NCBI RefSeq assembly: GCF_000230695.2
Contig: NC_020541.1
Coordinates: 4,154,001 to 4,218,000, forward strand
Origin: Rhodanobacter denitrificans
Lineage (GTDB): Bacteria > Pseudomonadota > Gammaproteobacteria > Xanthomonadales > Rhodanobacteraceae
DNA length: 64,000 nucleotides
Reading direction: 5' to 3'
The notes below the pieces were generated by a model. The model had not been told where the DNA came from, made no database searches, and saw nothing but the letters and a program-made list of their open reading frames with translations. The position numbers and the translations under genes are program-made. This document shows, piece after piece, positions 1-10,970 of this stretch. Position 1 is the stretch's first letter. The number at the start of each line of letters is the position of its first letter.

Positions 1-832
1 CACTCGTTGGTGTGGTTTTGCCTCCTTTGACACCTCTTTTGATAAAGAAATGAACGCGCTCGGCGACAATCTTCCAACGCGTGCGTGGAGGAAGGGTATC
101 TACCTCCATCGAGTTCACCTCGTTGATCCTCATTCCACTCGTAGTAATGACCTCAGCCATCAAGGCCTTGATCGGGCTACGATGACGCATGGCGCTTAGC
201 CACGTCTTGACTTCACCGGGAGTAGGTAGAGCCAGCTCCCGACTCGGTACTACATCGAGACTCCCTATCCGCGAAACAACGCTATGCGACCGTTTATGCG
301 CACCATCACCATTGCGGTGCCAAATGGTGGTTTCCCGCGTCATTATCTCAAAAGCAGACCTCATTGGCTTTCCGTCGTCTCGTTCAGGTACTAACGAAAG
401 CCACGTTAGGAAGTAACAAGCTTCTGCCACATAAAGGTTGATCGTAACGTTAGCCAGAGGCCTGCCGCTGCTGGAAAGCACACCGCTCACAAGGCCGTCC
501 TGCCATTTACAAACATCGCCGTACGACATAGTTGCGAGATTTAGGGGCTCCCCTCGAGGAAACCCGCGCTCAACCCAGGCAACAAATTCCCGCATGCGGC
601 GTGCAAGCGCCATGCAACTTGCCTCAGTCTGAAATGCCCTCCTGGGTTCGGCTGGCGTACCGTTCGTTCCCATCCTGAGCGGCCACTCACAAAGCGCGCG
701 GGCTCGAATGTAACGGTTTTCAAGCGCGGGATAGCTACCGTCCTCGCGAACAAGGAACGGAACATGAGCAACTGCCGGGTAGCCAGCTTCTATAAGTCGG
801 TTTGAATTCGGACGGACGACGCGCAAAGGCAC
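1..832 (-). CDS. Tyrosine recombinase (site-specific integrase), 3' end off the window
   Basis: An uninterrupted minus-strand reading frame runs from the intI junction to the left edge, giving at least 277 residues from a GTG at 832. It looks like a tyrosine recombinase. Residues about 60-180 resemble a helical core-binding domain (VAWVERG, then [13 protein letters not shown]). At about 222-245 comes the box I region with TSGMRINEV, whose Arg (about residue 235) would be catalytic. A Lys-rich GVKGGKT follows at about 267-273. Boxes with His/Arg and the Tyr nucleophile would lie beyond the window. Base composition is clearly less GC-rich than the core genome. No good ribosome binding site was found; GTG 898 is an alternative start and the frame is open further upstream. 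It begins where intI homology ends, so it probably belongs to a mobile element inserted into intI. The subfamily is not recognised. Confidence 0.68.
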
Positions 833-1806
833 GGAGGGATACTCATGTAGTTCTGGCAACTGTAACTTGAGAGAACTGTCAGCGCCCCGTCGCGACACGA
901 TTTGATGGGCATGCAGAAAATGTCCTGCCCGGCCTCCAGCAGGTGGGTGGCGAAGGAGTGGCGCAGGGTATGGCAGGTGGCCGGCTTGACGATGCCGGCC
1001 TTGAGCCGCGCGTTGCGTACGGCGCGCTGGAGGCCGGCCTCGTCCACGTGATGGCGCCGCCGCTCGCCATCACGCGGATCGCGCGACAGCTGGTCCGACG
1101 GAAACACATACTGCCAGCCCGGCTCGCGCGGCGCCGACGGATACTTGCGCGCCAGCGCATGCGGCAGCCACACCGCGCCCAGGCCCGCTGCCAGATCCTG
1201 CTGGTGGACCAGGCGCACCCGCTCCAGCTGCGCCTGCAGTGCTTCATGCAGGCGCCGCGGCAACGGCACATGCCGATCCTTGCCGCCCTTGCCGTCGCGC
1301 ACGCAAATCTGGTTGAGCTCGAAATCCACGTCCTTCACGCGTAACCGCACGCATTCCATCAGCCGCATGCCCGAGCCGTACAACAGCGAGGCCATCAGGC
1401 CGAAGCGGCCATCCAGCATCGCCAGCAGCCGGTTCACCTCGTCCCGCGAGAGCACCACCGGCACCCGCTGCGGCCGCTTCGCCCGCACCACCGTCTCCAT
1501 CCACGGCAACTCGATCGACAACACCTCCTTGTACAGAAACAACAGCGCCGACAGCGCCTGGTTCTGCGTGCCGGCCGCCACCTTGCCCTCGACGGCCAAC
1601 GTACTCAGAAAGCCCTCGACCTCCGCCACCCCCATGTCGCGCGGATGCCGCTTGCCATGGGCCAGGATGAACCGCCGAATCCAGCCCACATACGCGCGCT
1701 CCGTCCGCAAGCTGTAATGCTTCAAGCGCAACCGCGCACGCACCTGATCCAGCAACCGCGGCGTTTTTTCCCCCGTTACACCCTCACTTTCACCCGGGTA
1801 ACTCAT
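790..1806 (-). pseudogene. intI: Integron integrase IntI, 3'-truncated and fused to foreign sequence
   Basis: Residues 1-296 match integron integrases. Box I is [19 protein letters not shown] with Arg148, and [12 protein letters not shown] follows at 172-183. The IntI-specific insert WQYVFPS...RHHVDE is at about 231-256, and [19 protein letters not shown] carries His279 and Arg282. From residue 297 (about 918) the sequence is unrelated to IntI and reaches a TAG at 790. The usual segment with the second His/Trp box and the catalytic Tyr (LLGH...YTHV) is missing, so the product should not be able to recombine attI and attC. The gene is divergent from the cassettes, as usual, with its ATG at 1806. 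The abnormal tail overlaps the start of the tyrosine recombinase gene read in another frame, which marks the insertion point. The truncation is seen directly; loss of activity is inferred. Confidence 0.9.
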
Positions 1807-3063: not shown

Positions 3064-3117
3064 CAATTCATTCAAGCCGACGCCGCTTCGCGGCGCGGCT
3101 TAATTCAGGCGTTAGCC
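3058..3117 (+). repeat. attC2
   Basis: R'' GCATAAC (3058-3064) pairs with the GTTATGC that starts cassette 2; R' is GTTAGCC (3111-3117). The 60-bp central palindrome (CGACGCCGC/GCGGCGCGG) is the most divergent of the array. Confidence 0.92.
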
Positions 3118-3120
3118 TCT

Positions 3121-3516
3121 ATGCGCACACTATTCGCTTTTCTACTGCTCGCCGCTTGCAGCCAAGCGGCGGCGACTTCATGCGATGCGGTGAGCCATGC
3201 ACTCACCAACGCCCAAAGGGTTGCCTGGGCTCCCGTGTTGGCCAAAGAGCTAAGGGTTAGTTCGGCTTCGGTAAACCAATCGTTCGCTCTTGCAGACTGG
3301 CACATCATCCATGTCGAAACTCCTGACACAGATTCGCCATTCCTTTTCTTCCACGGCGACCCACTCAGCACTCACTTTGTCACTTTGTGGGCCGGTGCTG
3401 CCCGTTCGGAAGAGGAGGGCGCCATCAAAGCTTGGGTCATCAAAAATGCGCCAGGTATCCCTGAGCCACTCGCAGCTTGTTTTGCGTGGCACGTCACCAA
3501 GGTACGTAACCGGTAA
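3121..3516 (+). CDS. Cassette 3 secreted or lipoprotein-like hypothetical protein
   Basis: A protein of 131 residues that opens with a signal sequence (MRTLFAFLLLAACSQA). The LLAAC motif could be a lipobox with Cys13, although the n- and h-regions are short. The mature part has no recognised domain; it ends CFAWHVTKVRNR. The ATG lies only four bases after the core site, so there is no room for a ribosome binding site inside the cassette and translation may be weak or leaderless-like. Cassette 10 encodes a close paralogue at 7996-8391, differing at about a dozen positions. Confidence 0.75.
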   Translation: MRTLFAFLLLAACSQAAATSCDAVSHALTNAQRVAWAPVLAKELRVSSASVNQSFALADWHIIHVETPDTDSPFLFFHGDPLSTHFVTLWAGAARSEEEGAIKAWVIKNAPGIPEPLAACFAWHVTKVRNR

Positions 3517-3520
3517 ACTC

Positions 3521-3577
3521 GGCTAACAACTCGTTCAAGGCGGACGGCTTCGCCGCCGCTTAACTCCAGCGTTAGGC
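3521..3577 (+). repeat. attC3
   Basis: R'' GGCTAAC (3521-3527) matches the GTTAGCC that starts cassette 3; R' is GTTAGGC (3571-3577). The site is 57 bp with the common core. Confidence 0.93.
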
Positions 3578-5824: not shown

Positions 5825-6229
5825 ATGGTTCTGAGGTGGGCGTTGGCACTGTTGGGGATTCTTGTCAGCCTTGTTATTGCAGGCTTACTCGGAGGCCTTA
5901 CGGCTGAGCTTGTCGGGCTCTGGCATCTTCTTGGCGTTGGTTTCGGCGCTGCGTTCGCGGTCGTAGTTGTGGCTTACCTTGCCGCGCCCAATCACAGGAT
6001 TTGTGCTGCTGTTGTGGCGCTCGCTCTGGGGGCTATTGCTGCATGGCTGCTACTTGAACCTTCTTTCTACCCAGAGAGCTACGGGGCCGCTCGTGCCTAC
6101 GAGCCAACTCATCTGCCAATCGCCGTTACATACGTCGGCGGTCTACTCGGGCTACTTGTTGCAACGCTCATCAGGCGCCGGTCTGGGCCTAACCACTCGT
6201 TCAAGGCGGACGGCTGCGCCGCCGCTTAA
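5825..6229 (+). CDS. Cassette 9 membrane protein
   Basis: A membrane protein of 134 residues with four hydrophobic helices (LRWALALLGILVSLVIAGLL first, LPIAVTYVGGLLGLLVATLI last). The ATG at 5825 is preferred over the in-frame ATG at 5819 because AGGAG (5814-5818) touches the latter but lies six bases before the former. The C-terminus NHSFKADGCAAA is encoded by attC9. Family unknown. The cassette is followed directly by an IS1182-type element inserted in the attC9 R' core. Confidence 0.7.
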   Translation: MVLRWALALLGILVSLVIAGLLGGLTAELVGLWHLLGVGFGAAFAVVVVAYLAAPNHRICAAVVALALGAIAAWLLLEPSFYPESYGAARAYEPTHLPIAVTYVGGLLGLLVATLIRRRSGPNHSFKADGCAAA

Positions 6230-6239
6230 CTCCAGCGTT
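6187..6239 (+). repeat. attC9, R' core split by the IS
   Basis: R'' GCCTAAC (6187-6193) matches the start of cassette 9. The R' core is reduced to GTT (6237-6239), followed by the IS end GAGG. The rest of the core (GTTAGCC) reappears at 7986-7992 after the element. Confidence 0.92.
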
Positions 6240-7985
6240 GAGGCTGTAGAAAAAGCCCTTTCCACGGATGGATAGACGGCCAAAATGACAGCCGTTGCAT
6301 CACGTCACTCAACGGCGTGGTTTCTTGGGGTTTCGCGTTACGGGTTGCCCGGCTTGATCTGACGCGATGGGTGGGCGTCCCAGGCGCCCATGGCGCGCCT
6401 TGTGCCGCTCAGGCCGCCTTGCGGTAGTTCACCCACTTCTCGATGTTGTGGACCAGCGCGAACAGCTTCCATTGGCCGTCCACCTTTGCTTGGCCGCGAA
6501 GGGTGAAGCGATTGAGCCGCTTGTTGGCGCGCACGTTGCCGAAGACCGGCTCGACGGTAGCGAAGCGTCGTCCATACTGCTCGCGTCCCCACGCGCTGTC
6601 GATGCGCTCGCGCGTGCGCTGGCTATGGGTTGGCTCGGCTTTGCGGGTGAGCACGGCAACTTGCCGTGAGCGTGTGGTTTCGGGTTTTCGCAAGCACTTC
6701 GCACGCAGTGGGCAGTCCTTGCAAGCACCGTCGGGGGCGCGGAACTTGATCGCGGCATAGCCGCCAATGGTGCAGTCCTTGCCGTTGCGATGCAGGCGTT
6801 TGCCGGCCGGACAGATCACATGCGACTGGTCTGGCGCGATGATGAAGTCCTCGCTGCCGAACAGCCGCGGCTTGCCGGGGGTGCGCGACTTGTCGTGCAA
6901 CGGATCGGGCTTGGCCAGGTGCTTGTCCTGCCCGGCGAAGCGTTCGTCGCGCCGGCGCATCGCGTGGTCGGCGATCAGGGCGTCAATGCCCTGGTCGGCC
7001 AACGCGGCGAGGTTGGCTTCGCTGTGATAGCCGGCATCGGCGGTGATCAGCGTCGATGCGGTGCGCTGCTCGGCGCAGGCGTCCAGTACGGGCAACAACA
7101 ATTCCTGTTCGGCGCCGGTGCCGTGAGCCGAAGCCTCGACGATAACCTGGTGCCTGGCATCGACCACGGCCACGCCGCAATAGCCCTGGATCACGCCCTT
7201 GTCGGTGGCCAGCTTGGCCGATGCGTTATCGGTGCGATTGGACTTGCGGACCTTGCCGCGCGAACCGGGCCGATCTTGCGGATGATCGGCCAGCCATTGG
7301 CGGATCTTCGTTGCCTCGCGAGTAAGGCGCTCGATGCGTTCGGCGGCCTTGGCATCCCGCACGTCTTCGGCCGCGCCGGCATCGTTGGCCTGGTGACGTT
7401 CCAACATCGTGGTGGCCGCGCGCTCCATCTTCTGTGCCTGCGCAAGGAACTCCGCGCGCGTACCGGAGCGGTGTTTGGACGCGTTGGAAGGCAGCTTCAC
7501 GCCATCGATGGCGAACATCTGGCGCCCGATCAGACCCTCGCCGTCGAGCAACGTCAGCACCTGGGCAAAGACGGTCGCGATCGCCCCGCGCGAGCGGCTG
7601 ACGAAGTCCGCGATGGTGGTGAAGTGTGGCTTGGCGTCGCCGGTCAGGGCGATGAACAGCACGTTGTCGCGGCAGGCGCGCTCGATCGAGCGGGAGCTCA
7701 CCATGCCTTGGGAATACGCCAGCAGCACCGCCTTGAGCAACATCGTCGGCGCATGGGCCGGCGCGCCGCTGTCGTCATTGCGGTAATGCGCATCGAAGGC
7801 GGACAGATCCAGCTGATCGACCAGATGGTGCACGGCATGGGCAAATGATCCCGGCACCAGCTGCGCCTGCAGATCCACCGGCAACAGCCGCGGACTCATA
7901 TCGATATGCCGGTAGCGTGCCATGCCGCCCCCTTGTTCACGTGGGGCTATTGAAGCAGGATGGGCGGAGGTATTTCTACAACCTC
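6240..7985 (-). mobile_element. IS1182-type insertion sequence inserted at an attC core
   Basis: The element is 1746 bp long, with terminal repeats GAGGCTGTAGAAAAA (left) and GAGGTTGTAGAAATA (right, read inward), 13 of 15 identical. It is flanked by GTT on both sides (6237-6239, 7986-7988), which may be a 3-bp target duplication. It lies exactly after GTT of the attC9 R' core. It carries one full-length transposase gene, and about 170 bp at its left end has no gene. The two 158-bp MITEs in this array share its ends and its insertion position. Confidence 0.9.
6409..7923 (-). CDS. IS1182 family transposase
   Basis: A transposase of 504 residues. The N-terminal DUF772-like part has LDLSAFDAHYRNDD at about 38-51, then MLLKAVLLAYSQGMVSSRSIE. 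The central DDE catalytic core has AIDGVKLPSNASKH at about 143-156 and TADAGYHSEAN at about 293-303. A cysteine-rich insert contains CPAGKRLH, CKDCPLRAKC. The C-terminal segment ends FGNVRANKRLNRFTLRGQ...WKLFALVHNIEKW, typical of the family. Length is normal and the frame is intact, so the element looks active. The ATG at 7923 is 62 bp from the right terminal repeat. It is the obvious candidate to move the MITEs in trans. Confidence 0.93.
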   Translation of the reverse strand: MARYRHIDMSPRLLPVDLQAQLVPGSFAHAVHHLVDQLDLSAFDAHYRNDDSGAPAHAPTMLLKAVLLAYSQGMVSSRSIERACRDNVLFIALTGDAKPHFTTIADFVSRSRGAIATVFAQVLTLLDGEGLIGRQMFAIDGVKLPSNASKHRSGTRAEFLAQAQKMERAATTMLERHQANDAGAAEDVRDAKAAERIERLTREATKIRQWLADHPQDRPGSRGKVRKSNRTDNASAKLATDKGVIQGYCGVAVVDARHQVIVEASAHGTGAEQELLLPVLDACAEQRTASTLITADAGYHSEANLAALADQGIDALIADHAMRRRDERFAGQDKHLAKPDPLHDKSRTPGKPRLFGSEDFIIAPDQSHVICPAGKRLHRNGKDCTIGGYAAIKFRAPDGACKDCPLRAKCLRKPETTRSRQVAVLTRKAEPTHSQRTRERIDSAWGREQYGRRFATVEPVFGNVRANKRLNRFTLRGQAKVDGQWKLFALVHNIEKWVNYRKAA

Positions 7986-7995
7986 GTTAGCCTCT

Positions 7996-8391
7996 ATGCG
8001 CACACTGTTCGCTTTTCTACTGCTCGCCGCTTGCAGCCAAGCGTCGGCGACTTCATGCAATGCGGTGAGCCAGGCACTCACCAACGTCCAAAGGATTGCG
8101 TGGGCTCCCGTGTTGGCCAAGCAACTAAAGGTCAGTTCGGCTTCGGTGAACCAATCGTTCGCTCTTGCAGACTGGCGCATCATCTATGTCGAAACTCCTG
8201 ACACAGATTCGCCATTCCTTTTCTTCCACGGCGACCCACTCAGCACTCACTTTATTACTTTGTGGGCCGGTGCCGCCCGTTCGCAGGAGGAGGGCGCCAT
8301 CAAAGCTTGGGTCATCAAAAATGCGCCAGGTATCCCTGAGCCGCTCGCAGCTTGTTTTGCGTGGCACGTCACCAAGGTACGTAACCGGTAA
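7996..8391 (+). CDS. Cassette 10 secreted or lipoprotein-like protein, paralogue of cassette 3
   Basis: A protein of 131 residues with the same signal sequence (MRTLFAFLLLAACSQAS) as the cassette 3 product, and the same length. About a dozen amino-acid changes are scattered in the mature part, such as D22N, H27Q and E43Q, and most DNA changes alter the residue. The frame is open further upstream only because it enters the IS; the ATG at 7996 lies four bases after the core GTTAGCC, as in cassette 3. The function is unknown. Confidence 0.78.
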   Translation: MRTLFAFLLLAACSQASATSCNAVSQALTNVQRIAWAPVLAKQLKVSSASVNQSFALADWRIIYVETPDTDSPFLFFHGDPLSTHFITLWAGAARSQEEGAIKAWVIKNAPGIPEPLAACFAWHVTKVRNR

Positions 8392-8395
8392 ACTC

Positions 8396-8448
8396 GGCTA
8401 ACAACTCGTTCAAGGCGGACGGCTACGCCGCCGCTTAACTCCAGCGTT
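8396..8448 (+). repeat. attC10, R' core split by MITE A
   Basis: R'' GGCTAAC (8396-8402) matches the start of cassette 10. The R' core is cut after GTT (8446-8448) by MITE A; the continuation GTTAGAT is at 8607-8613. Confidence 0.92.
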
Positions 8449-8606
8449 GAGGTTGTAGAAAAACCACTTCTGGACAAGTTGACCGCCAAGCAGGGGAAAA
8501 GCGACCTCACAGAACGCTCTACAATCGACGCGCAGCCTGCCGGGAAGGGTTCAAGTACCCCCTGAAATCATGCGAATCCGCGCCAGGGTACTTTTTCTAC
8601 AACCTC
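8449..8606 (+). mobile_element. MITE A (158 bp) in attC10
   Basis: This 158-bp element has perfect terminal inverted repeats GAGGTTGTAGAAAAA and TTTTTCTACAACCTC, with no coding capacity. GTT stands on both sides. Its ends match those of the IS1182-type element at 6240-7985. Inside, AAGTACCC and GGGTACTT form a second inverted repeat near the right end. It is identical in sequence to MITE B. Confidence 0.9.
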
Positions 8607-8625
8607 GTTAGATGTGGAGGTTTCC

Positions 8626-9069
8626 GTGCGCACCTTTGTGCTTTTCCTTGTGGCAGCCCTACTACTCAGCACTGCAGCGCAAGCTACGCAGCCTTATTCT
8701 GAGCAGTTTTCCGCCAAGTTTAAGGCGGCGGTAGACAATGCAATGAGCCAACCGACTGCTGATGGCAGGACTAGGCTTCTAATGGAGGCCATGCGCGGCG
8801 GGACCGACAGCGAAGTGTTTTTTGTCTTTCCGCTACTTTTCCCTCGCAGGGTCATAGATGCCGCTCAAAACGCGCATATATGTGTCGCTGAGATTTCGTC
8901 TTCAATCAGTAATGGCAAAGCGTACTTGGCTGCCGCTCCGGCTGAGCGGGAAGATTTTCCTCATGCGCAGGCAAAGAAAATTCGGTCTGACATGGATCGC
9001 CTGATCACGTGTCTCGATCGATACTATGCCAATGGCCAGTTACGACTTCCTTCGCAATCATCTAACTGA
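8626..9069 (+). CDS. Cassette 11 secreted hypothetical protein
   Basis: A protein of 147 residues with a typical signal peptide (MRTFVLFLVAALLLSTAAQA, cleavage probably after AQA). The mature part is helical and has two Cys. The GTG at 8626 was chosen because GGAGG (8616-8620) lies five bases upstream. The frame is open back to 8614, which would put the ribosome binding site inside the gene. The role is unknown. The cassette begins directly after MITE A, so transcription from Pc has to cross the IS and this MITE. Confidence 0.72.
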   Translation: MRTFVLFLVAALLLSTAAQATQPYSEQFSAKFKAAVDNAMSQPTADGRTRLLMEAMRGGTDSEVFFVFPLLFPRRVIDAAQNAHICVAEISSSISNGKAYLAAAPAEREDFPHAQAKKIRSDMDRLITCLDRYYANGQLRLPSQSSN

Positions 9070-9112
9070 TCGTTCAAGGCGGACGGCTTCGCCGCCGCTT
9101 AATTCCAGCGTT
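9060..9112 (+). repeat. attC11, R' core split by MITE B
   Basis: R'' ATCTAAC (9060-9066) is complementary to GTTAGAT, the core that stands after MITE A. This proves the cassette 11 boundaries. The R' core is cut after GTT (9110-9112) by MITE B. Confidence 0.92.
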
Positions 9113-9270
9113 GAGGTTGTAGAAAAACCACTTCTGGACAAGTTGACCGCCAAGCAGGGGAAAAGCGACCTCACAGAACGCTCTACAATCGACGCGCAGC
9201 CTGCCGGGAAGGGTTCAAGTACCCCCTGAAATCATGCGAATCCGCGCCAGGGTACTTTTTCTACAACCTC
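9113..9270 (+). mobile_element. MITE B (158 bp) in attC11
   Basis: It has the same 158-bp sequence as MITE A, with the same terminal repeats, and sits at the same position of the attC R' core. The left flank is GTT. The right flank is ATT (9271-9273) instead of GTT, a single-base difference from the GTTAGGC core expected from the R'' of cassette 12. Confidence 0.9.
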
Positions 9271-9283
9271 ATTAGGCCTCAGC

Positions 9284-9566: not shown

Positions 9567-10970
9567 CTACTGTGTCACTAAAGACGTCTGGTGCTCGGAT
9601 GCGCCATGCCGCAGCAAGGACATCGCGCCAACTGTCGCGCGATCAGGCGGGCGAGACGAAAGTGTACGGTCGCGATCGAGAGCGGTTGATGGCGCTGCAT
9701 CGGCCCCGGCCCCACGCGGGCGGAAGCCTTCGGGTACGGCAGGCGCCTTGAATCGTGCACGGTTTTTTTTACTGCCACGCAAGCGCTCCAACGTCAGGAA
9801 GCCGTAGGCCGCGATACACAGGCTGGCGTGATGATGAAAGCCGCGCCAGTTGCGCCCCTCGTAGTGACCCAAGCCGAGTTCTTGCTTGAGTTCCAGGTAG
9901 TCCCGCTCGATGCGCCAACGGCCCTTGATGGTGCCGACAAGGGCCTTGAAGGTCGTCGCTTTCGGCAACGTCGACAACCAGTAGCGTAGCGGTTCGGCGT
10001 CGCCGCCAGGCCATTCGATGACCAGCCATTCGGGCGCGCGATCGCGGTCGTCGTGGGCGGCGACCACGCGTACGCGGGCGAAGCGGCCGGACAAGGGTTC
10101 GGCGGAGCCCTGCCGCCAGGTAATGGTGCGGTACGCCCGCGCCGGCAACGCCTGCGCCAACGCACGCACACTGATCGGCCGGTGCGCCGCATCGCGGCAT
10201 ACCCGCACGCGGGGGCGTCCACCACCCGTCGCAGGCGGTGGTGGCGTGGCTGGTTGATGCTTGCCCCACCACACCGCCGTGAGCGGCCTGACGCCCAGCG
10301 CGTAGATCAGGTCTTGCGTGCTCAGCGCATCGCGAAGCATGCTGTCATCGCCGTAGGCGGCATCGCCCAACACGACGCCTCGCGGCACGCCCGCCGCGAC
10401 GGCGGCGCGGATCTGCGCCACCGCAATCTGGTTCTTGGTCAGAAAGCCGACTGATGCGGGCACCCCAACAGCGGCACATCGCTGCGGGTCGTCGGTCCAT
10501 TCGGCCGGCAGGTATAGCTGATACGCCAACGGCAGGCTGTTGGAGTCCGTCGCCAGCGACAAGCTCACCGCCACCCGACAGTTGTCGGTCTTGCCGGTCT
10601 GCCCGCAGTACTGCCGGGCTACGCCCACCGAGTGCCTACCCTTCTTCGGAAAGCCGGTGTCATCAATGATCCAGAAGCACGGTGTGGTTCCGCCGTGCGT
10701 CAGCACGGGCAGCACCTGCTCGGCCACGGCGGCCAGCAAGGCATCGTCGTTCCATGCCGACGTCGACACCAGGTGATGCATCGACTGGTGGGTCGCCCGT
10801 ACATCTTGCGGCCGCACCCGTGCCGCCATCGGCTCCACGCTCTTGCGGCCGCCAGGCAGCATCAAACCCTGCAGATACCAGCGCGTGGGCGCCACCCGAT
10901 CCGCGTGCCCCATGGCGATGACCATCGCTTCGCCATACCGCTCAAAGCGGCCTTCCAGACCGATGCCCAT
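9567..10970 (-). CDS. IS701 family transposase
   Basis: A transposase of 467 residues of the DDE type (DDE_5 superfamily). It has CFWIIDDTGFPKKGRHSVGVARQYCGQ at about 98-123 with the first Asp, VVLGDAAYGDD at about 199-209 with the second, and RWRIERDYLELKQELGLGHYEGR with the Glu at about 350-372. The ATG at 10970 follows GGAGG within nine bases. Length and frame are normal. The last residues SLVTQ lie in the terminal repeat. Confidence 0.93.
   Translation of the reverse strand: MGIGLEGRFERYGEAMVIAMGHADRVAPTRWYLQGLMLPGGRKSVEPMAARVRPQDVRATHQSMHHLVSTSAWNDDALLAAVAEQVLPVLTHGGTTPCFWIIDDTGFPKKGRHSVGVARQYCGQTGKTDNCRVAVSLSLATDSNSLPLAYQLYLPAEWTDDPQRCAAVGVPASVGFLTKNQIAVAQIRAAVAAGVPRGVVLGDAAYGDDSMLRDALSTQDLIYALGVRPLTAVWWGKHQPATPPPPATGGGRPRVRVCRDAAHRPISVRALAQALPARAYRTITWRQGSAEPLSGRFARVRVVAAHDDRDRAPEWLVIEWPGGDAEPLRYWLSTLPKATTFKALVGTIKGRWRIERDYLELKQELGLGHYEGRNWRGFHHHASLCIAAYGFLTLERLRGSKKNRARFKAPAVPEGFRPRGAGADAAPSTALDRDRTLSSRPPDRATVGAMSLLRHGASEHQTSLVTQ

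What the first reader, a model, noticed from the sequence alone, without database searches (positions are those of the whole stretch)
8449..9270. Two identical MITEs inserted at the same point of attC sites
MITE A (8449-8606) and MITE B (9113-9270) have the same 158-bp sequence and sit in different attC sites (attC10, attC11). Both stand directly after GTT of the R' core. Their terminal repeats (GAGGTTGTAGAAAAA) are those of the IS1182-type element in attC9. The cassette boundaries are proved by the matching R'' and R' cores (ATCTAAC with GTTAGAT). Identity over the full length implies recent movement. The attC-targeting elements I know are IS1111-attC elements and group IIC-attC introns; a non-autonomous, IS1182-related element that uses integron recombination sites as a home would be new to me.
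Basis: partly seen in the sequence, partly recalled or inferred. Interest (0 to 1): 0.86.

Follow-up and report, generated by a model that had tools for sequence, protein, structure and literature searches.

The report
Transposons that home into integron attC
Two identical 158-base mini-transposons, and the full-length transposon whose ends they share, sit at exactly the same base of integron recombination sites, and most relatives of that transposon examined in other Proteobacteria sit at the same core sequence, so this transposase lineage likely homes into integrons and would be a third, unrelated kind of mobile element to do so.

Summary
MITE A (8449-8606) and MITE B (9113-9270) are identical and stand directly after GTT of two attC R' cores. 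The IS1182-family element at 6240-7985 stands at the same point of a third attC; its two other genomic copies, 0.8 and 1.5 Mb away, do too. An attC model built only from unoccupied sites finds 28 attCs in the genome, and all five elements abut one exactly. In 233 genomes of the family, 37 of 41 exact terminal-repeat matches abut GTT or its complement AAC. Relatives at about 36-89% transposase identity do likewise: 50 of 54 elements are flanked GTT/GTT, and 34 of 49 testable ones have a model attC ending at the junction, against none in 23 control IS1182 loci. The attC-inserted transposases form one clade. I read this as an attC-homing clade of DDE transposases with dependent MITEs. Recognition mode and trans-mobilisation are inferred. 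Searches of an open-access library found no earlier description; ISfinder was not available.

The parts
6187..6239 (+). attC9, R'' to GTT of R'
   Evidence: R1 model 74.5 bits, match ends at 6239
6240..7985 (-). IS1182-family element in attC9; GTT at 6237-6239 and at 7986-7988; transposase antisense to the attC
6409..7923 (-). IS1182-family transposase, 504 aa, DDE-type domains
8396..8448 (+). attC10, R'' to GTT of R'
   Evidence: R1 model 73.8 bits, match ends at 8448
8449..8606 (+). MITE A, 158 bp; GTT at 8446-8448 and at 8607-8609
8607..9112 (+). cassette between the MITEs, GTTAGAT start, ORF 8614-9069 of unknown function, attC11 at its end
9060..9112 (+). attC11, R'' to GTT of R'
   Evidence: R1 model 70.5 bits, match ends at 9112
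9113..9270 (+). MITE B, 158 bp; GTT at 9110-9112, ATT at 9271-9273
3110..3573 (+). empty-site relative of 7985-8448 (95.3%): no IS on its left, no MITE on its right
790..1806 (-). integron integrase gene that lacks its C-terminal part

Best explanation
The two MITEs and the IS1182-family element sit directly after GTT of the R' core of attC sites, and they were likely placed there by an attC-homing DDE transposase that defines one clade of the IS1182 family and would also move the MITEs through their matching terminal repeats. Shown: the exact insertion point, GTT on both sides (ATT on one side of MITE B), one orientation in the host's family, one clade on the tree, empty-site relatives. Inferred: the transposase makes a 3-bp staggered cut at GTT, so that the doubled GTT is its target duplication; it reads CGTTAG together with further attC features (the L' box, perhaps the hairpin), because CGTTAG also occurs at many non-attC places; it acts on the MITEs in trans. 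Also inferred: since the element begins GAG, insertion leaves the upstream attC a near-complete core (GTTGAGG), so that attC may stay usable and the element may travel as the 5' end of the next cassette.
For: 5 of 5 elements of the genome abut one of 28 model attCs, in three separate clusters. 37 of 41 exact ends in 233 genomes abut GTT or AAC. 50 of 54 elements are GTT/GTT; 34 of 49 with enough flank have a model attC ending exactly at the junction, 0 matches in 23 control loci. One clade of 46 attC-labelled and 4 unresolved rows, SH-aLRT 100, one change of state. 15 of 15 elements of the host's family antisense to the attC. C at -4 in 51 of 52. Empty sites. The only over-cut-off integrase gene is incomplete, which speaks against integrase-driven copying.
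Against: 15 of 49 junctions have no model attC; some show hairpins by eye, while L027, L084, L085 and L088 are unclear. Of the 34 matches, five have E above 0.01 (L015, L041, L110 at 8235, L012, L106). MITE B (ATT), L020 (ATT), L054 (GCT) and L106 (GTC) deviate by one base, and one end in G147 abuts TAA. Transposition, trans-action and the duplication are not shown by experiment. An element that brings its own GTT would look the same. Insertions in genes may have been lost, which inflates the share in attC.
Confidence: 0.8

Rival explanations
1. The transposase reads only a short duplex sequence such as CGTTAG. attC sites are over-represented because they carry it, lie outside genes and are neutral, so insertions there survive.
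For: The flank profile is strong only at CGTT|GTTAG. The genome has just 139 CGTTAG sites, so 28 attCs are a fair share of them; the chance of 5 in 5 under equal use is then about 3e-4, not the 8e-9 of the looser CGTTRRRY, and weaker still if only intergenic sites count.
Against: In the host's family 20 of 24 elements with a readable attC side abut a model attC, and the other four include no clear non-attC CGTTAG site (my tally). An L' box stands upstream in 51 of 57 junctions against 9 of 44 background CGTTRRRY sites (the box was chosen after seeing the flanks, and the 57 include one spurious pair).
Confidence: 0.14
2. The MITEs were multiplied not by transposition but by the integron integrase, as passengers of cassettes, or by gene conversion between similar attCs.
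For: The copies are identical and lie in similar attCs. Insertion leaves GTTGAGG, a near core, so a MITE could ride on a cassette.
Against: Different cassettes follow A and B, and relatives of the neighbouring cassettes exist without MITEs. The only over-cut-off integrase gene of the genome lacks its C-terminal part. Relatives of the MITE in two other genomes also sit in attCs.
Confidence: 0.05
3. Arrays are simply neutral ground that collects insertions of any kind, and the shared position is accidental.
For: Another IS (IS701 family, 9567-10970) also lies at the end of this array.
Against: The elements share one exact base in many unrelated attCs.
Confidence: 0.01

Closest known systems
IS1111-attC group (IS110/IS1111 family: ISKpn4, ISPst6)
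   Different: Their transposase is of the DEDD type and is guided by a seekRNA made from a non-coding region (same paper, abstract and passages). Here the transposase has DDE_Tnp domains and scores as IS1182, with terminal inverted repeats and GTT on both sides.
IS1272 and TnSha1 (IS1182 family)
   Same: Same transposase family; targets are inverted repeats that can form hairpins (passages of PMC4923244).
   Different: IS1272 has no primary sequence consensus, cuts within the stem, deletes part of the target and makes no duplication (same passages). The clade here keeps the attC whole up to GTT and has GTT on both sides.
Group IIC-attC introns
   Same: Mobile elements that use attC as a home (recalled; the start of the PMC7923331 abstract names group IIC introns with integrons, and a title on insertion at attC stands in its reference list).
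   Different: Retroelements with a ribozyme and a reverse transcriptase (recalled); no terminal inverted repeats.
Bacterial MITEs of other IS families
   Same: Short, no transposase gene, terminal repeats shared with an IS (general knowledge).
   Different: None that I found in the searches (listings only) is described as homing to attC.

Membership tests
IS1182 insertion-sequence family | transposase over the curated IS1182 model cut-off | tested here: met
   NF033551, 312.7 bits against 270
IS1182 insertion-sequence family | DDE-type catalytic domains | tested here: met
   PF13751, PF01609, PF05598; D and E residues of candidate motifs invariant in 21 relatives, their role recalled, not tested
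IS1182 insertion-sequence family | terminal inverted repeats around one transposase gene | tested here: met
   GAGGCTGTAGAAAAA and GAGGTTGTAGAAATA at 6240 and 7985
MITE | short, repeated, terminal inverted repeats, no transposase gene | tested here: met
   158 bp, two identical copies, perfect 15-bp repeats
MITE | moved in trans by a related transposase | not testable with these tools
   only shared ends and shared target seen
attC-homing element | independent copies at one fixed base of different attCs | tested here: met
   5 of 5 in this genome; 34 of 49 more widely
IS1111-attC group | IS110/IS1111 DEDD transposase | tested here: not met
   Pfam and NCBIfam hits are DDE_Tnp and IS1182
IS1111-attC group | guide RNA from a non-coding region | not tested
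   non-coding stretches are short (about 170 and 60 bases beside the gene); no RNA search aimed at this was made
IS1272-like hairpin insertion | insertion within the stem with deletion of target and no duplication | tested here: not met
   attC kept up to GTT, GTT on both sides, empty sites

The most novel reading that the evidence does not exclude
One clade of the hairpin-seeking IS1182 family has turned the integron attC into its dedicated home: a DDE transposase without a guide RNA reads the folded or extruded attC from its R' edge, inserts with fixed polarity, rebuilds a core for the upstream attC and rides, with its MITEs, inside cassettes. It is a third, independently evolved way of homing into integrons.
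Probability: 0.35. Interest if true: 0.86.

Novelty: new variant of a known kind. Interest (0 to 1): 0.74.

Why it matters
Integrons are known hosts of elements that home into attC, but those known to me use an RNA (IS1111-attC, group IIC introns). A DDE transposase clade with the same address, seen here in Beta- and Gammaproteobacteria, would offer a natural protein that tells attC from other DNA, a handle for finding attCs, and a way in which cassette arrays may be broken, silenced or given passengers. Because the family includes IS1272, which seeks hairpins, it makes the question whether a DDE transposase can read folded DNA directly testable.

Tried and rejected
Chance placement: rejected. 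Cassette duplication as the source of the second MITE: rejected, because different cassettes follow A and B and relatives without MITEs exist. MITE as a simple internal deletion of the local IS: no similarity beyond the ends. Known RNA in the array: no Rfam match at gathering score. Inverted-repeat alignment as an attC test: did not discriminate, 18 of 57 under 0.05, and was replaced by covariance models. A strict RYYYAAC search found R'' in only 22 of 52 sites, and in 45 of 247 background sites, since R'' varies (attC10 has GGCTAAC). An AlphaFold model of the transposase was of middling quality (mean pLDDT 72.3); I made no fold search and rest nothing on it. Plasmids: two Pseudoalteromonas records at 39-42% identity; one end in L172 and two in L173, all beside AAC.

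Rows dropped and limits. One search listed 57 pairs; I set aside the false A-left/B-right pair, the controls L104 and L108 and a spurious pair in L116, and added MITE B, which gives 54. still held the L116 pair: one search printed 55 and 50, and I give 54 and 49. The end profile was trained on 26 ends of this clade, without flanks. Of the 37 loci, 20 gave both ends, 12 one end, 3 were read by eye and 2 gave none (L046, L049); one search also printed a few motif matches with other flanks that I judged spurious. One search used 78 rows after removal of duplicates and fragments; its attC labels rest on flanking triplets, for some rows on one end only; of the four unresolved rows in the clade three (L029, L038, L091) show GTT or AAC by eye and L082 stays unresolved; 7 further unresolved rows lie outside. 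The tree is the quick method, with long control branches. Genome searches score only the best candidates: 3 a genome, 4, 5, 150 of 6538, so their counts are lower bounds. One search printed L161-L171 only where the flank already fitted, so I do not count those; L157-L160 were unfiltered.

Full report
What is there. The window holds a cassette array with an integron integrase gene at its left end. Eleven attCs are found in it by a covariance model (R1, 52 positions) built from 19 unoccupied attCs of this genome and of relatives, cut at GTT of the R' core. attC9 holds an IS1182-family element, attC10 MITE A and attC11 MITE B; in all three the model match ends at the base before the element. The MITEs are identical over 158 bp. 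The right triplet of MITE B is ATT instead of GTT.

Own genome. The IS has three copies (100, 99 and 98% identity; a fourth row is a 38-base stretch). The other two lie in two further attC clusters, at 2.65 and 3.36 Mb, again directly after GTT of R' and in the same orientation. The model finds 28 attCs at E <= 0.001: 11 in the window array, 5 and 10 in the two clusters, 2 single; 150 of 6538 first-look candidates were scored, so 28 is a lower bound. So 5 of 28 attCs are occupied, and 5 of 5 elements are in attC. The genome has 1158 CGTTRRRY and 139 CGTTAG sites; under equal use the chance of 5 in 5 is about 8e-9 or 3e-4. The second number is the fair one, because the flank profile itself reads CGTT|GTTAG, and it does not allow for the loss of insertions in genes.

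Empty sites. The cassette after the IS has a relative at 3110-3573 that matches from the last base of the IS to the last base before MITE A. The cassette between the MITEs has a relative in the 2.65-Mb cluster that matches from the last base of MITE A to the last base before MITE B. Neither relative carries an element at these edges. GTT is present on both sides of the inserted copies and once in the empty ones, as a 3-bp target duplication would give; an element that brings its own GTT would look the same.

The host's family. An exact search for GAGGYTGTAGAAAAA in 233 genomes found 41 ends in 12 genomes; the pattern read backwards gave 1. Flanks of 32 ends are and of the other nine: 37 of 41 abut GTT or AAC, and the rest show AAT, AGC twice and TAA. 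By my tally over elements (one of them) have a readable attC side, and 20 of them abut an R1 match. The other four are a tandem insertion beside another copy, a rearranged flank, a shortened attC-like site, and a site with a hairpin that the model misses. Seven ends show only the far side, so their attC cannot be read. The MITE itself matched in 6 of 233 genomes: besides the host, G191 (88%) and G159 (two copies, 74%) hold it in attCs, with A and B five copies in one orientation. Of the other three, G156 keeps GTT at both edges, G184 is decayed, and the 38-base match in G132 was not followed. The host shares its family code with G065, whose stretch is identical to a Dyella lutea record, so it likely belongs to the Rhodanobacteraceae.

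The clade. Transposase relatives came from named genomes (37 loci) and from a class-wide sample (61 of 369 genomes with any match). Ends and flanks were found by inverted-repeat and profile scans. Of 54 elements with both ends, 50 are GTT/GTT and four differ by one base on one side; identity of the transposases to the window's runs from about 36 to 89%. R1 matches, taken up to E = 1, end exactly at the junction in 30 of 49 with enough flank. A broader model, R2, from 34 unoccupied attCs and run on 67 loci (44 with elements of this clade or MITEs, 23 controls), adds L028, L032, L045 and L106, which gives 34 of 49; five of the 34 have E above 0.01. Neither model matches in the 23 control loci of other IS1182 transposases. 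Of 30 loci from an NF033551 scan, two are clade members; among the other 28, 14 have a convincing repeat, and none of these 14 has GTT or AAC at a tip. Four of them (L127, L128, L130, L133) look inserted in terminator-like hairpins. The quick tree of 78 transposases puts the 46 attC-labelled rows and four unresolved ones in one clade with SH-aLRT 100 and one change of state. Control rows have long branches, so their own order is unsure.

Polarity. In 45 elements the transposase gene is antisense to the attC in 25 and sense in 20. It is 15 of 15 antisense in the host's family; more widely the two states fall mostly into separate groups of the tree by eye, with exceptions such as L081, sense beside antisense rows. 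C stands at -4 in 51 of 52, which separates R' from R'' in duplex form. A complete genome of another family (G474) has four copies of equal score, their ends beside GTT or AAC, one with a second copy in tandem; the attC nature of two of these sites is unclear to me.

How it likely works. The transposase carries DDE-type domains. I infer a 3-bp staggered insertion at GTT of R', read as CGTTAG plus more of the attC. Whether the extra information is the L' box in duplex form or the folded hairpin is open. The second is suggested by IS1272, an IS1182 relative that inserts into hairpin stems without a sequence consensus (passages of PMC4923244); that element deletes part of its target and makes no duplication, which this clade does not. 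MITEs with the same ends share the site, so trans-action by the IS is the simplest reading. The MITE folds on itself better than 199 of 200 shuffles (z -3.09), mostly through its terminal repeats. The integrase is an unlikely agent of recent copying: the only gene over the family cut-off lacks its C-terminal part, and a weak match to that part lies about 23 kb away.

Print. Nine library searches gave no paper that joins IS1182 with attC. Four papers hold both words; I read the matching passages of all four, and none links the two. PMC12444791 and PMC11089894 (passages) speak of IS1111 elements as attC-targeting; the second assigns array transposases mostly to IS5, IS3 and IS110, and since some tools write IS5/IS1182 as one name (passage of PMC9908598) such elements may have been counted there under IS5. 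Subscription journals and ISfinder were not searched.

Noticed in passing
790-1806 (-), and G000:C1:4131704-4131892 (L176): The integron integrase gene covers model positions 1-279 of 315; a piece that matches positions 252-314 lies about 23 kb away, as if the gene had been split by an insertion.
   Followed up: partly
1930-1975, and L004 just beyond 4433: The sequence before the first cassette (CACCCCACTTTTGGGGTCTACTTAGCGTTAG), likely attI, has a near copy before a cassette of the 2.65-Mb cluster, where no integrase over the cut-off was found.
   Followed up: no
L110 8236-9985 and 9989-11738; L160: Two copies of the IS stand in tandem with one GTT between them, in two different genomes.
   Followed up: no
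L127, L128, L130, L133: Other IS1182 elements look inserted inside terminator-like hairpins, as published for IS1272.
   Followed up: no
L117 2502-3224 (G023): A 723-bp derivative of the IS that keeps about 350 and 374 bases of its two ends, beside GTT at an attC-like site: a possible half-way stage to a MITE.
   Followed up: partly
L113 1438-1583 (G147): A different 146-bp MITE stands after GTCTAACTCATTCAAACGTT, which looks like an attC that has lost its hairpin.
   Followed up: no
L111 near 1805 (G147): An isolated exact end abuts TAA instead of AAC and has no partner end nearby.
   Followed up: partly
9567-10970 (-); L164 6703-8106 (-): An IS701-family transposase closes the array; an ORF of the same length lies in the 3.36-Mb cluster, not compared.
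   Followed up: no
L023 and L024: The transposase of an Armatimonadetes MAG is identical to that of an Oxalobacteraceae MAG, so the first contig may be misbinned.
   Followed up: no
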